This document shows positions 21,222 through 41,400 of a stretch of 64,000 nt of DNA, piece after piece. Both the position numbers and the translations under genes were made by a program. This stretch comes from Helicostylum pulchrum (taxonomy: Eukaryota; Mucoromycota; Mucoromycetes; Mucorales; Mucoraceae), in NCBI GenBank assembly GCA_025677825.1, contig JAIXMO010000025.1:359140-423139 (forward strand), read 5' to 3'. Under the pieces are notes generated by a model. It worked only from the letters and a program-made list of their open reading frames with translations. It ran no database searches and was not told where the DNA came from. Position 1 is the first letter of the stretch; each line of letters begins with the position of its first letter.

Positions 21222-21624
21222 ATTGTTCTTTTCTCCCCCTTTTTTCGGTATTTGTGCTTTAAAATACACTCAATAAAAATGATAAATCAATCACTTTGTA
21301 AAAAAAAATATGTATATTGCTTTTAATAAAATTATTTGAAACCAATACACAATAGCAACAAAAGTGCACTTTTAAATTATTTATTTCATCAAAAAAAATA
21401 CTAATTACATCTACGTTCTTCATTCCTCCTAGCTCCAGCGATTGGATTTACGCAGGCAAGTTAAGTCAAAAATAATTACGTTAGCTTAAAATCTGCCAGA
21501 CAAGAGCCACCGACACCCGTAAAACGCTGTAAATGATCTTCCTTTCGAATACGATACAAAAAAAAAAAAAGAATGATACGGATTCCCAACTCCGCTTTCG
21601 ACGTTCAAAAAGCAAAAAGTTAAT
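21222..21624. other. Intergenic region before tRNA-Trp
   Basis: No gene is seen. It holds the 3' flank of the small protein gene and the downstream flank of the minus-strand tRNA. Confidence 0.5.
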
Positions 21625-21696
21625 GAGAAATAAGAGAATCGAACTCTTGACCTTCAGATTTGGAATCTGACGCTCTACCAATTGAGCCAATCTCCC
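21625..21696 (-). tRNA. tRNA-Trp (anticodon CCA)
   Basis: The reverse complement folds as a complete 72 nt cloverleaf without an intron. The acceptor stem is GGGAGAT with ATTTCTC. The D arm is within GGCTCAATTGGTAGAGC (A box), the anticodon stem-loop is TCAGATTCCAAATCTGA with loop TTCCAAA and anticodon CCA, and the T arm is AGAGTTCGATTCTCT (B box). Translated peptides over this region are therefore spurious. Confidence 0.95.
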
Positions 21697-21752
21697 ACAC
21701 TTGTTAATTGATTTAAAATTTTATATAAATCAAAAATGTAATATTTAAAAAT

Positions 21753-21769: not shown

Positions 21770-22346
21770 AGTCAACCAATCAGAATCCTTCTAACAAGCC
21801 GCTAAAAAATTAGTAGTTACTTATAGGGTTGTACTTTCGTTGAAAAATGGCAAGTTGTTCATGCTAAAAGATAAATTATTTAGGTAGTGATAAAGTCTAT
21901 ATAATAAACCAACTTTACGTGCTAAAACTGACTTTTTTAAAAAAAATTAAATCAAGTACAAAATGATTTTTTATATACTATTTCCCGAAAATATTGACGC
22001 ACTTTTTGAAAAAAAATAGATGGCCCGAAAATTATTTATAAATTGGCGCAAACCAAGGGTTGACCAAATGCACCAAATTGTTAGAATAATCATGATAGGA
22101 TCTTGACTAAAAATATAGTTTATAATTGTTTGTCGTTCTTGTTAAAACCTGAATTCTAATGAGACACCCTCTGGGAGCTGAAGATCCTGTAGTTGATGAA
22201 TATGCAATACATGCTCTTTGAGTACTACGTTTAAACATAATTAAAAAGGTAGTGTATTAGCAGGTCTGAAAATCTTTAATTGCGTCGTTGCCTGACGCTT
22301 CTTAGGGTTTGTTGATCATTTATTGAGACCTTGCTCTTCTGTGTTG
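21770..22346. other. Intergenic DNA, nothing recognised
   Basis: AT-rich sequence without long frames, between the tRNA flank and a decayed Fanzor-like tail. Confidence 0.5.
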
Positions 22347-22470
22347 TTATCGAGGGGCTTCACCACGTCCAAACCTTGGCGGCATACGAAATGAACGAAC
22401 AATGTGAAGCATGTTCAGACAAGCAGTCATATCACAATTTTATAGACGAGTAAAAAGTCCCTGATTGTTG
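22347..22470 (-). pseudogene. Possible Fanzor/TnpB-like C-terminal remnant
   Basis: On the minus strand one frame reads NQGLFTRL, a stop, then NCDMTACLNMLHIVRSFRM and PPRFGRGEAPR before its own stop. This resembles the RuvC-III and tail of Mucoromycota Fanzor-type proteins, in which an (L)WNRD motif precedes A-x-LN-(F/M). The Trp position is now a stop and the Arg a Cys. No zinc ribbon or upstream RuvC sequence could be joined to it. It lies about 0.6 kb from the longer Fanzor and points the other way. Confidence 0.4.
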
Positions 22471-23110
22471 CTATTCATGACTGGTAATCAGCAGGAGAAT
22501 ATCCAGTCAAAACAACAGGGAGAAGAGTTTTAAAAGAAAGATTGTAAACAGGGCCCTAATCTAATACAAAATTATCTACCGGTAGTCTTGTAGCTATAAG
22601 CTGCTTGAATCATGTTGCTAGCTGGGTTATTTGTCAAATAGTTTGGCTTGTATCAATAACAGCACTCACTTATTAATACATTTGTGCTACGCATATCAAG
22701 CCGAGGATATAATATCGTTCAACTTGGGATACACAAGCAGCATATGTCAGTTATACTCGCTGAACGTACACTTGGTGTTTCACCTAACAATCTGATTCTC
22801 TTTTTTACATTACGTTTTGCCTGTGTTTCAAACATTAGCCAGACATAAATAAGGGGATTTCATTGATTGAGACACGCTAAAAGTCAAAAACAACAACCCT
22901 CCCCTCCAAGTCTTACCATGCAATGTCTTTTAAAAAGGGTTGGATTTCCTTTATGAGTATTTTATAGCGTAGTACTATTATATTTATTAGTGTAATCATA
23001 CTACAGTACGACAATGACTTTAACTGGTCTTTTTACAACGATGGGATCAAAAAATTAATCAGCCAAAAAGGCTTAAACAAAAAATACATCAGTGACTTGC
23101 AAAGGCTATA

Positions 23111-25242
23111 ATGATGTCAAATCCCTCTTTTTCTTTTCATTATTGTTTTCTTACGATGGAGCCACCACAGAAATTAGTAGTGATTAAAAGCTCAACTACT
23201 GGTATAGGTTGGAAGGATGCATACAAGCAGCGTCTTATGGAACTGGTGAAGAATGTTAATATCATTGTGACACACACATACTTATTTTTGAAGTTTATAT
23301 TTGTTAGCGAGCTGGAGGATGATAATACCGATAATGTATTCAATTTGGAAGCTCTCATCAATGAGGATTTTTTCAGAGAAGTCTTTATGTCGTTATTAAG
23401 TGCGTACAAGATAAAAAAGCGAGAAACTGGAAACATTCAAAACAATTATAAACGAGCATAGAGAAACTTTTCTTGAACGTACATCCTACAAACCTATCAA
23501 TCTAAGGTACGGACAACAGATAGCGAACTACGAAGTAACCAAAATCCGTACTGCTTATATCAACAATGTTACTTCTAATTTTGGAAACAATTTGAGGAAG
23601 ATGTTAAACTTAATAATGAAAAAAAAAGGATAGGTTACAGGAAGCTGACATGTCCAAAGAAGATAGACAGAACGTTTACAGCCAAATGAACAAAGTCAAG
23701 TTAGCTGTATCTTCAAAAAAATTAGAGGATGCTACTTCAGAATTTTTAGGTCAAAATGGTATGAACGCTATTAGAAGTTTTATTGGTTGTTACTCTGAAG
23801 ATTGCAAGTTCGAGAAAGGCTCCATCTTTTATGATTGCAAGGCAAATTCTGTAAAGTATTTAAGGGCTTATTACCAAACCGCTAAAACGTGTGAAGCTTT
23901 GCAAGGTGAAAATTCTATAAACTGCTTTCCTATAAGAACTACGTTTACTCCCTGCTATATGACAATCGGCACCTTAATTTTGAATACTCAAATTTTTAAA
24001 AACATGGTCTCGACGCATCTGGACAAGCAAGTAGTTTGGAGTAGAGCTATTAATCTCAATTCAAAAGGAATGGAACCACAAGGTTCTGATAAACAAATGA
24101 AGTTCAAAGGAATGATTTATACTGACGGCGTAGGCGTGTCTATTCTTAAACAAAACTATGATCCAAGGAAAAGAGGTGATAAGAAGAGTAAAAAACAATT
24201 AGAGGACAAGGATTCCTTCAAATATATAGAAGATCTAAAAAAAGAAGACCTTCTTGCTGATGTTGGTAAATGCGTTTTGGTTGATCCAGGTCGAAGAGAC
24301 CTACTATATTGTATGCATGAAAATAGCACTTCCCAAACCAAAATGGTCTACAGATACACAAGTAACCAGAAAGGAGTTGAAGCAAAGTCCAGAAAGTTTA
24401 GAAAGCTCCGTAACCGTTTTAAGCCTGATGAAGTGTTTGCTGCTGAACTTTCTCTTTCTTACCATCATGCCACTTCTGTCAACAAGGAAAATTTTGTAAA
24501 ATATCTGGAAGCTAGAGCAAATGTGTCTGAAGGCTTAAGCAACTACTACGGCAATGAAGATATACCTCCAGGAGTCAGAGCTGCTGATCGTTTACCTTTT
24601 CGCAAAATGAAGCTTTCAAGTATTATTAACATGAAGCAATCAGAACAGCGATTAGCTAAAAAGCTTAGACAAAAGTTCGGACAAGCCTCTGTAATTATCA
24701 TAGGCAACTGGACCGCAGCAAATGTGAAGTACCACGAACCCACCAAAGGAGTCGGAATAAGAAACATGCTCAGAAAAGAAGGATTCAAGGTCTATTTGTT
24801 GGACGAGTTCAAAACTTCCTCATTATGTCCTTCTTGCAAAGATGGTACTACCTTAGAGAAATTTAAAGAAGTTAAAAACCCTAGGCCGTTTAGACGAACT
24901 AAAAATCCTACTGTAATATGTCGTGGTTTGCTAAGGTTAAACACAATATGTTAATATCTAAAATACTATGAAACTGACAACCAGTTTGAAACTTGTAGAT
25001 GTACCAATGAAAACTGTCTACAATATAGCAAGGAATCTCTAGTTCGTCGTCGTTTTTACAACAGAGATATGGCTGCAACATTGAATTTTAGACATATTTT
25101 GTTTAGTTTGCGGGAAAACGGTATTAGGCCTGAAAGTTTTGTACGCAAGACAAACAACCAATCACTTTCAACAACAAGACCAAACCTCAAAAGAAAAGCA
25201 TCAGCTTCTTCCTCCATCCCTGGCACTCAAAACAAAAAGTAA
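23111..25242 (+). pseudogene. Fanzor (eukaryotic TnpB homologue), two frameshifts, one intron
   Basis: About 670 codons can be followed. Frame 1 (23111-23459) contains RLMELVKNVNIIVTHTYLFL. Frame 2 (about 23460-23625) contains GQQIANYEVTKIRTAYINNV. Frame 3 (about 23626 to the end) holds the nuclease part. RuvC-I is VLVDPGRRDLLYC (Asp codon near 24283). The RuvC-II region is SVIIIGNWTAANVKYHEP, where Asn stands where relatives usually carry an acid. A zinc ribbon starts with SLCPSC and is completed by CTNENC across an intron at 24936-24998 (GTTAAA...TTGTAG) that removes an in-frame TAA. RuvC-III is FYNRDMAATLNFRHIL. A basic tail of about 50 residues follows. Fanzors are RNA-guided DNA nucleases, usually carried by transposons. 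The two shifts (near 23457 and in the A9 run near 23620) make it a recent pseudogene or reflect assembly errors. No transposase or terminal repeats are visible next to it. Confidence 0.85.
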
Positions 25243-25906
25243 TTTTCCCGTGCAGTTATCGCTGTAACCCATCAAGATACAGAGTAAGTTTTAACCAAAT
25301 GCATAATGAACCTAAATTTTTTCATGTTGTGAACCTAATTTTTTTTAAAAATTTTGTGCCTATTTTTTTTCGATAAGTGAACTAATAATTTCGGAAAATA
25401 ATGTAGTAGGCTACTATTATACTATTTATTTAATATGCTTATCTAATAAATTTCTCACGAAAAAAAATAAAATAAAATGTGGATGCTACTACAAAGATTT
25501 ATTTATCTATTACTGTTTTTTCTTTTTCTTTGTTGTTATTGATTGTTATCCTCGGTCAATAATACGCAGTTAACAAATGAATAGCTTAGTGTTAATTTAT
25601 TTTGTCACACATAAAAATGATTGCTATTAGCAATAAATGTTTTTGTTTACATATAAAAGTGGGTTCACTCCTAGTTTATTTAAAAAACTAATAACCTACT
25701 TGATTGAGCACTCACATTTTTTTAAAAGAGATTTTAAGGAATATGTTTTATATTATAGAGGTACTGAATTTATTTAGTGTAGCTGTTGTTGGGTAGTTAT
25801 AATAAAAAAGATATGCTGTTACAATTTACATATAAATACAAGTATATCAGTCATGTATATATTAGTGATTAAATGAGTGGTCTCCAAAAAAAAGGGGAAA
25901 GTAAAA
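25243..25906. other. Fanzor 3' flank and intergenic DNA
   Basis: No gene is seen. In known OMEGA systems the guide RNA is encoded at or after the 3' end of the nuclease gene, so 25200-25450 is the place to look for one. No obvious stable structure or terminal repeat was found by eye. Confidence 0.4.
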
Positions 25907-38471: not shown

Positions 38472-41400
38472 ATGCGTTTAGTTCCTCGTGAATTAGATAA
38501 ACTCTTGGTACATCAAGGTAAATAAATAAAAAAAGTTTTAAAAAAAAGCAATGATAACCCTTCAAAAAGTTCATTTTTGGGGATTTTTTAAAAAAAAAAA
38601 TTATAAAAAAAAAAATTCTGCCTAAAAATAGCCTAGTTTGTTCCTAACAATAATGCCGCTTTTCCCATTTTTTCTATCCTTTTTTTTTTTTTTTTTTTTT
38701 CTGTTTGCTAAAAATACTATAGTTGGTGCACTTGCACAAAAGCGTTTAGCGCGAGGTGTACAGCTTAACTATGCTGAAGTAATCGCGTTGATTTCCTCTC
38801 AACTACTTGAGTTTATGAGAGATGGTTGTTACTCTGTTTCTCAACTTATGGATTTGGGTAAGCAAATGCTGGGGCGGCGTCACGTACTACCTGAAGCGAT
38901 AGATATCGTAAGGGAAATCCAAGTAGAAGGTACGTTTCCAGACGGTACTTACATGGTTACTGTACAAGAACCCATCTGTACGGATAATGGTAACCTCGAG
39001 ATGGCACTCTACGGGTCTTTTTATCCAATCCCAGATCAGTCAAAGTTTAAACTCCATGGCCCTAGAAACAAAGAAGACGCTCCTGGTGCGATCATTGCTA
39101 TGCCTCAACCAATTCATTTGAATGTTGGTAGAAAAAGATTATCACTTACTGTGACAAACCATGGAGATCGAGCCATTCAGGTATTGCATTTGCATTGTTC
39201 ATGTTTATATATTATGCTTCTAAAAATAACAATAATTTAAATTTTAGGTTGGGTCTCATTTCCATTTTATTGAAACAAACAAACACTTAAACTTCAATCG
39301 TGCACTTGCTTATGGTATGCGACTTGATATTCCAGCAGGTTCAGCCACGCGTTTCGAGCCCGGAGATTTTAAAACAATTACGCTAGTAGAAATTTCTGGT
39401 AAAAAGATTATTTCTGGTGGTAACGGTTTAGCAACAGGACCTGTAGATATGATTAAATTACCTAGTATTATCGAGAACCTTGTATCGCTTGGTTTTATGC
39501 ACGATTCCAACGCTCCTCTTTTACCCAACGCTCCCCCTTACACTTTTGAACGCGACTATTATATTGATCACTTTGGTCCTACTACTGGCGATTTGGTTAG
39601 ATTAGGCGACACGAACTTATGGGCAAGAATTGAAAAGGATTATACGATATATGGTGATGAATGTAAATTTGGTGGCGGTAAAGTACTTCGTGAAGGTATG
39701 GGTCAATCTACATACGATTGTGATGCAGATGTTTTGGATTTATTGATTACGAATGCTATGATCTTTGATTACTCGGGCATTTATAAGGCGGATATTGGTA
39801 TCAAGAAGGGAATCATTGTTGGAATAGGAAAGTCAGGAAATCCTGATATTATGGATGGTGTTACGCCAGGTATGATTTTTGGTGCTAGTACTGAGGTTTT
39901 GGCGGGAGAAGGTATGATTTTTACAGCTGGTGCGATCGATTCTCATGTTCATTATATTTGTCCCCAAATGTGTTATGAGGTAAGAAATGATTTTGTGTAA
40001 CAATTCTCTAAAAGAGTTAAAATTAATACATTTTTGGGTATTTTTTTTTTCCTCCTCAAAGGCTTTAGCAAGTGGAATTACAACTTTGATCGGTGGAGGT
40101 ACTGGTCCAAATACAGGTACAAATGCTACTACTTGTACACCAGGCAAATATCATTTAGAAACTATGATGCAAGCTACAGATGACCTTCCCCTTAATTTTG
40201 GATTTTCTGGCAGGGGTAGTTGCTCAGCTTTGGAACCTTTAAGAGAACAAGTCGAGGCTGGGTGTATGGCTTTGAAGGTACACGAAGATTATGGTGCGAA
40301 TTCCAAGGCAATTGACACATGTTTGACCATTAGTGACGAATTAGATATTCAGGTATAATTTGGTTACAAGATGACTAAGAAGTTACTAACCCAACCCATG
40401 GAATCTTTCTCTTTTTTATTTTATTTTTTACCTTTTTTTTTCGTACTACTCTTTTTTTTTAGACTACTATTCATACAGATACTTTAAACGAAGGTGGATT
40501 TGTTGAAACTACAATTGAAGCTTTTAAGGGAAGAACTATTCACACTTATCATAGTGAAGGTGCTGGCGGTGGTCACGCTCCTGACAGTAAGTGTAACGTT
40601 GAACTAAAAAGAAAGAAAGTGATACTAAAAAATTACATGCGCAGTTATTACCGTCTGTAGTGAGCCTAATGTGTTACCATCTTCTACCAATCCAACACGT
40701 CCCTTCACAGCCAATACCTTAGATGAACATATTGATATGTTAATGGTATGTCACCATTTATCCAAGTCAATTCCAGAAGATGTTGCGTTTGCCGAAAGTC
40801 GTATTAGAGCAGAAACAATTGCAGCTGAAGATGTGTTGCACGACATTGGTGCTATTAGTATGATTAGTTCTGATTGTCAAGCCATGGGAAGAGTTGGCGA
40901 AGTCGTGTTACGTACGTGGAAAACAGCACATAAAATGAAACTCCAGCGTGGTAAACTACCTGAAGATGAAGGTCGCGCAGATGATAATGTCAGAATTAAG
41001 CGATATATTTCAAAGTATACCATTAATGTGTAAGTATTATTTTCTCTCCCCCCCCCCTTCATATTTTCATTCTATTGACACTATCTATCTATAGCGCCCT
41101 TGCTCATGGTGTTAGTCATTTGGTTGGTTCAATTGAAGTAGGTAAGATCGCTGATCTTGTGGCATGGACACCTGCATTTTTCGGCAGCAAGCCAGACCTT
41201 ATTTTAAAGGGTGGTATAATTGTATGGGGCCAAATGGGTATAGTATAAATTAAACTTAATTTAGGTATAATCATGTATATTTAAAAAAAAAAAACTCCGG
41301 ATTATTTAGGTGATGCAAACGGATCTATTTCCACAACGGAACCTATTGTGTCCAGACCAATGTTTGGTTCATTCCCTTCTGCGCTTTCCAAGAGTTGTAT

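What the first reader, a model, noticed from the sequence alone, without database searches (positions are those of the whole stretch)
23111..25242. Fanzor RNA-guided nuclease homologue, nearly intact, with a spliced zinc ribbon
RuvC-I Asp, zinc ribbon and RuvC-III Asp are all present, and an intron (24936-24998) joins the ribbon halves CPSC and CTNENC while removing a stop codon. Two one-base shifts in the N-terminal third are the only breaks, one in an A9 run. Fanzors are eukaryotic relatives of TnpB and Cas12, so an almost intact copy in a fungus is of practical and evolutionary interest.
Basis: partly seen in the sequence, partly recalled or inferred. Interest (0 to 1): 0.8.

Follow-up and report, generated by a model that had tools for sequence, protein, structure and literature searches.

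The report
Broken Fanzor nuclease in mariner-type transposon
This is one damaged copy of a small mobile-element family in a mould that carries a Fanzor, a relative of the CRISPR nucleases; the gene is of a known type, but the sites where its copies sit show a one-sided sequence mark that may be a trace of the nuclease at work.

Summary
Window 23111-25242 is a Fanzor1 gene, closest among solved proteins to Parasitella PpFz1 (E 2.4e-105), with RuvC-I Asp, the Fanzor-type alternative Glu, a split C4 ribbon, RuvC-III Asp and a 63-nt intron present in 9 of 9 aligned sibling copies. The two N-terminal breaks are real, but the first is an 11-nt deletion, not a one-base shift. The gene lies in a 3.4-kb element (21974-25405) with Tc1/mariner-type inverted repeats and TA at both borders. 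No transposase was found in it; a transposase-bearing element with similar ends lies elsewhere in the genome (Helicostylum pulchrum, Mucorales). I count 17 places with this family; of nine aligned copies one has an open coding sequence of 692 aa. A+TA fits the ATN target motif published for PpFz1. I read this, tentatively, as a footprint of RNA-guided retention; a preference of the unidentified transposase is not excluded. The element itself is a new member of a known kind.

The parts
21970..21973 (+). TTTA in the left flank, next to the element; with the TA that follows it gives TTTATA (predicted target-adjacent motif, contains ATA)
   Evidence: TTTA in 11 of 13 left flanks, 0 of 16 right flanks (mirrored), 0 of 37 ends of other elements with similar repeats
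21974..22019 (+). left terminal inverted repeat, beginning with the TA of the target site
   Evidence: (46 nt, 78% complementary to 25360-25405)
22020..23110 (+). 5' non-coding part of the element; no transposase found
   Evidence: mean pairwise identity of the 5' part (21974-23110) among 9 aligned copies 0.963
23111..24935 (+). Fanzor1 exon 1 (N-terminal part, RuvC and first half of the zinc ribbon); two breaks, near 23421 (11 nt short of sibling C125) and at 23619 (one extra base)
24936..24998 (+). 63-nt intron splitting the zinc ribbon; contains an in-frame stop if unspliced
24999..25242 (+). Fanzor1 exon 2: second half of the zinc ribbon, RuvC-III Asp (25066-25068), stop 25240-25242
25243..25303 (+). 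3' non-coding block shared by the copies; candidate upstream part of the guide-RNA scaffold (inferred)
   Evidence: identity 0.964 among 9 copies, no higher than the 5' part
25304..25359 (+). short repeats of about 23 bp that vary in number among copies
25360..25405 (+). right terminal inverted repeat ending with TA; can fold as a weak hairpin; predicted 3' end of the guide-RNA scaffold (inferred)
25406..25425 (+). right flank; would supply the guide if the RNA runs past the element end
   Evidence: inference from passages of PMC10432273 and PMC11423790

Best explanation
Shown: the window holds a broken copy of a Fanzor1 gene inside an element with Tc1/mariner-type ends and TA at both borders, in which no transposase was found; it is one of 17 places with this family in Helicostylum pulchrum. 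Inferred: the element is moved in trans by a Tc1/mariner transposase encoded by other elements with similar ends. A working sibling makes a Fanzor1 protein and an RNA that reads out of the right end, so that the right flank is the guide. The RNP then cuts the empty site (left flank plus TA plus right flank) if the left flank offers a target motif such as TTTATA. Repair from a DNA copy that still holds the element restores it. Insertions beside the motif are thus kept and others are lost, which would leave the one-sided TTTA seen today. The window copy itself no longer has an open frame for the whole protein, but keeps both ends and could still be served in trans.
For: Fanzor identity. Element borders, inverted repeats and TA. 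Transposase-bearing element with similar ends: L067, 376 aa, PF13358 E 3.7e-27. Selection on the protein: dN below dS in 36 of 36 pairs of 9 copies, ratio 0.33 to 0.91. Copying in trans: one internal deletion is shared by three copies and one frame break by three others. Footprint: TTTA before TA in 11 of 13 left flanks, 0 of 16 right flanks, 0 of 37 control ends, and 154 of 11,462 TA sites of the window (both strands); Fisher p 2e-9 against controls, 2e-6 against right flanks. One-sidedness: of 12 copies with both flanks read, 10 have TTTA at the left and 0 at the right. PpFz1 TAM is ATN; SpuFz1 TAM is CATA and its element SPu-1 has inverted repeats and putative TA target duplications.
Against: No empty site was found: joined flanks of 2 of 12 copies were searched and hit only themselves. 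The transposase that moves this family was not identified, so an orientation-specific preference of that enzyme is not excluded. Two of 37 control ends have TTA, though not TTTA; one of them, L088, is 86% like the Fanzor left repeat over 42 nt. One of 13 copies, C78, lacks the motif and C24a has ATTA. The right-end block is not more conserved than the 5' part, the fold of two sequences shows no compensatory change, and there are no expression data.
Confidence: 0.5

Rival explanations
1. The element is as described, but the one-sided TTTA comes from the transposase: its complex reads an asymmetric target and always inserts in one orientation. The Fanzor plays no part.
For: The left and right repeats differ, so the complex need not be symmetric. 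A related end, L088, has TTA next to it.
Against: 37 ends at 31 loci with similar repeats show TTTA in 0 and TTA in 2; they are probably served by several related transposases, so this is not a perfect control. The C81 element, whose right-end repeat is 89% like the Fanzor left repeat over 46 nt, has TTA at neither end.
Confidence: 0.3
2. TTTA is part of the element: its true left end lies about four bases further out and it leaves no TA duplication on that side.
For: TTTA is found at 11 of 13 left ends.
Against: The T run before the A varies from 0 to 6. C78 differs at three of the four places although its repeat differs from the pattern at one of 24. The other elements with similar ends begin at TA with varied flanks.
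Confidence: 0.12
3. A plain relic: the family's Fanzor does nothing for the element and the copies decay neutrally.
For: Eight of the nine copies aligned carry stops or exon-1 indels in the coding sequence, several of them frame-breaking; some breaks are shared among copies.
Against: dN is below dS in 36 of 36 pairs, one copy is open, and the flank mark is one-sided.
Confidence: 0.15

Closest known systems
Parasitella parasitica Fanzor 1 (PpFz1; PDB 9cf0-9cf3; P0026)
   Same: The open sibling is 44% identical to it over 483 columns and 50% over 114 columns of exon 1; same DPG, alternative Glu and ribbon; best fold match of the window piece (E 1.5e-30)
   Different: PpFz1 has an FRI insertion of about 100 residues in RuvC (PMC11423790, passages); the two aligned blocks are 109 residues apart in PpFz1 and 11 in the sibling, so the window's family lacks it. 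The host transposon of PpFz1 was not examined.
Spizellomyces punctatus Fanzor 1 (SpuFz1) and its element SPu-1
   Same: Fanzor1 in an element with 33-bp inverted repeats and putative TA duplications, 17 full-length copies, nine with intact frames (PMC3627910, passages)
   Different: SPu-1 is about 2.1 kb with one single open reading frame; SpuFz1 TAM is CATA (PMC10432273, passages)
PUl-4, an element with only a Fanzor1 gene and Mariner repeats (Bao and Jurka 2013)
   Same: No transposase, repeats identical to confirmed Mariner members, TA duplications (PMC3627910, passages)
   Different: Sequences not compared here

Membership tests
Fanzor1 nucleases | sequence homology to characterised Fanzor1 proteins | tested here: met
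   PpFz1 E 2.4e-105, SpuFz1 E 8.8e-35
Fanzor1 nucleases | DPG at RuvC-I and alternative catalytic Glu (signatures named in PMC10711439, passage) | tested here: met
   residues 221-223 and 395 of P0001; in the 60-row alignment A1, D in 57 of 59 rows with a letter there, E in 55 of 57. The column of the Glu was set by me from the alignment with PpFz1 and SpuFz1
Fanzor1 nucleases | C4 zinc ribbon followed by RD of RuvC-III (motif given in PMC3627910, passage) | tested here: met
   CPSC and CTNENC joined by the intron, then NRD
Fanzor1 nucleases | RuvC fold | tested here: met
   AlphaFold model of the 443-aa piece (mean pLDDT 76, pTM 0.63; residues 401-443 mostly below 60): 7 PDB chains at E <= 0.001, all Fanzor; best TM-score 0.62 by query length
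Fanzor1 nucleases | RNA-guided, TAM-dependent DNA cleavage | not testable with these tools
   needs RNP biochemistry; the window copy is broken
Fanzor1 nucleases | guide RNA from the element's right end | tested here: inconclusive
   shared 3' block and hairpin-forming repeat exist, but no excess conservation and no compensatory change
Tc1/mariner elements | terminal inverted repeats with TA at both borders | tested here: met
   one left border of 13, C118, reads CA
Tc1/mariner elements | TA is a target duplication (empty site known) | tested here: inconclusive
   2 of 12 joined flanks searched, only self matches
Tc1/mariner elements | encodes a DDE transposase | tested here: not met
   no tblastn match (E up to 1) of the L067 transposase in the element; so it is filed as a non-autonomous passenger element with Tc1/mariner-type ends, not as an autonomous member

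The most novel reading that the evidence does not exclude
The flanks of this family are a genomic fossil of Fanzor action in its native host: insertions persist beside a target motif (TTTATA) on the side opposite the guide, because the RNA-guided nuclease cuts the empty site and the element is copied back. For mariner-borne Fanzors the motif would be the last bases of the left flank plus the TA duplication, as the SpuFz1 motif CATA also suggests.
Probability: 0.45. Interest if true: 0.72.

Novelty: new member of a known kind. Interest (0 to 1): 0.42.

Why it matters
What Fanzors do for their transposons in eukaryotes is little known according to a passage of PMC10711439. If the one-sided flank mark is a trace of Fanzor action, target motifs could be read from genome sequence alone, and the idea that the nuclease keeps the element in place becomes testable in any genome with many copies. 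If the mark comes from the transposase, that can also be shown by an ordinary insertion assay.

Tried and rejected
Transposase inside the element: none found with the L067 transposase; open frames listed. Guide-RNA family in Rfam at gathering thresholds: two matches in the window, neither in the element. Excess conservation of the 3' block: not seen. Same ends on other Fanzor loci of the genome: no full match in 22 loci, some of them overlapping, with flanks of about 1.5 kb. The C96/C154 family: I saw no terminal inverted repeats. Empty sites in the own genome: only self matches for 2 of 12 copies searched; the window copy's right flank had no other match, and its left flank only one, to a piece at the tRNA gene. 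Literature: listings of searches showed nothing on a TAM footprint or on Fanzor retention in mariner elements; one search listed 40 of 82 papers. Two papers that I wanted (10.1126/sciadv.adk0171 and 10.1038/s41586-023-06597-1) are not held.

Full report
What was checked. The window lies in contig C87 of a 32.2-Mb assembly. Six protein records of Helicostylum pulchrum sit on contigs whose lengths equal those of C125, C136, C24, C87, C152 and C96 (P0003-P0006, P0008, P0037), so the organism is this mucoralean mould. The search table gives that model and most relatives the Pfam accession PF26935; my own Pfam scan of four pieces did not list it, and I do not know its name.

Identity. The 443-aa piece 23623-24951 matches Parasitella PpFz1 at E 2.4e-105 and Spizellomyces SpuFz1 at E 8.8e-35; exon 2 matches both at 3e-6 and 7e-4. 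A model built on 60 sequences (mean pLDDT 76; residues 401-443 mostly below 60) finds seven PDB chains at E <= 0.001, all Fanzor, the best with TM-score 0.62 by query length. Asp, alternative Glu and Asp, and the four ribbon cysteines are in place. The Asn before the RuvC-III RD, where the open sibling has Asp, is also Asn in PpFz1 and SpuFz1.

The intron. It is in 9 of 9 aligned siblings with GT and AG kept; C79 has 18 nt deleted inside it. Of ten further Fanzor loci given to the script, seven showed the GLLR/K/Q motif before it. By my reading of the printed DNA all seven (six places: C96, C154, C84, C158, C136, C130) have a GT...AG stretch at the same codon and phase, with the second cysteine half following (in C158 one cysteine is changed). 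The three loci without the motif were not followed. So the intron looks older than the split of these families. Splicing itself is not shown; the public models P0003 and P0006 agree with it.

The breaks. Against the open sibling C125 the window copy lacks 11 bases near 23421 and has one more base in the A run at 23619. Of nine aligned copies only C125 has neither an in-register stop nor an exon-1 indel (692 aa spliced); indels were listed for exon 1 only. Nine of the 17 places were aligned; the rest are fragments, split or internally deleted.

The element. DNA searches put the right border at 25405 and the left at about 21971. The ends are 46-nt inverted repeats, 78% complementary in the window copy. 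Every border that could be read (13 left, 16 right) has TA there, except C118, which has CA. Merging the 28 matches by hand gives 17 places of this family and three of other Fanzor loci. Three copies (C96, C147a, C147b) share one internal deletion, and one frame break is shared by C24a, C79 and C1, so broken copies have moved or been copied. In 36 of 36 pairs dN is below dS (ratio 0.33 to 0.91).

Who moves it. A pattern search for the repeat found 65 matches, none with the reversed control pattern; by place, 28 belong to this family and 37 do not. Those outside include L067, a 1.45-kb element with a 376-aa DDE_3 transposase frame, which has 118 tblastn matches in the genome (a lower bound). 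In its first DDE motif I read Asn where Asp is usual; that motif is recalled, from no call, so this copy may be inactive. No match of this transposase lies inside the Fanzor element.

The one-sided flank. For 13 left and 16 right borders I listed the bases just outside TA. TTTA stands at 11 of 13 left borders and at 0 of 16 right borders (mirrored); TTA at 12 of 13 and 2 of 16. Control: the 37 non-family ends, at 31 fetched loci, give 0 TTTA and 2 TTA. By coordinates no Fanzor match listed lies within 10 kb of them; those lists are lower bounds, and a few of the weaker pattern matches may not be true ends. In the window 154 of 11,462 TA sites (both strands) follow TTTA. Of 12 copies with both flanks read, 10 have TTTA left and none right; TTA is 11 left and 2 right. 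The base before TA is A in 13 of 13 left flanks, 16 of 37 control ends and 5 of 16 right flanks. The published PpFz1 motif is ATN (PMC11423790, passages). The 13 left flanks differ from each other, so these are separate insertions. Exceptions are C78 (ACAA) and C24a (ATTA). The two control ends with TTA are L075 and L088; L088 is 86% like the Fanzor left repeat over 42 nt. The C81 element, 89% like it over 46 nt at its right end, has TTA at neither end.

Reading. The best reading is a passenger element with Tc1/mariner-type ends, moved in trans, whose Fanzor favours insertions beside its target motif. Steps shown: gene, ends, copy number, selection on the protein, one-sided flank. Steps inferred: the transposase, the guide RNA, cleavage, repair. 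TnpB-mediated retention in bacteria is recalled, not looked up; a paper that I wanted on it is not held.

Known or new. Fanzor1 genes in Mariner elements with TA duplications, some without transposase, were described in 2013 (PMC3627910, passages). The same passages name MuDR-type carriers in Rhizopus, Phycomyces and Mucor; I saw no Mariner-type carrier in Mucorales in them, but I read passages only, and no supplement. In the listings of searches 20 (40 of 82 papers), 21, 54, 55, 56, 70 and 71 I saw nothing on this family or on a flank footprint; papers outside the held library were not searched.

Noticed in passing
L024 (C96:110617-114546), protein P0037: A second Fanzor1 family of the same genome aligns in one stretch with PpFz1, FRI insertion included (47% identity overall). 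PMC11423790 (passage) reports FRI only from Parasitella and Rhizopus, so Helicostylum would be a third genus.
   Followed up: partly
C96:111073-114379 and C154:13205-16518: That second family is 98% alike between two places over 3.3 kb, with sharp borders but no terminal inverted repeats that I could see; its carrier seems to be a different kind of element.
   Followed up: partly
window 24936-24998: Among the classes compared the intron varies least in nine copies (identity 0.984 against 0.956 at third codon positions); 150-base windows reach 0.981 elsewhere, so it may be chance.
   Followed up: no
window 21623-21697 (-): A tRNA-Trp gene lies about 280 bases left of the element.
   Followed up: no
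window 39686-39977 (-): The Rfam match 5_ureB_sRNA lies opposite an open frame 39248-40000 (+) that looks like urease to my eye (recalled, not searched), so it probably reflects urease coding sequence and not an RNA gene.
   Followed up: partly
C124:29286-29474, C149:47119-47288, C150:76475-76554, C125:123973-124043: Facing repeat matches that span about 70 to 190 bases: very short elements with the same kind of ends.
   Followed up: no
window 25304-25359 and the same place in siblings: Short repeats of about 23 bp that differ in number between copies just inside the right repeat.
   Followed up: no
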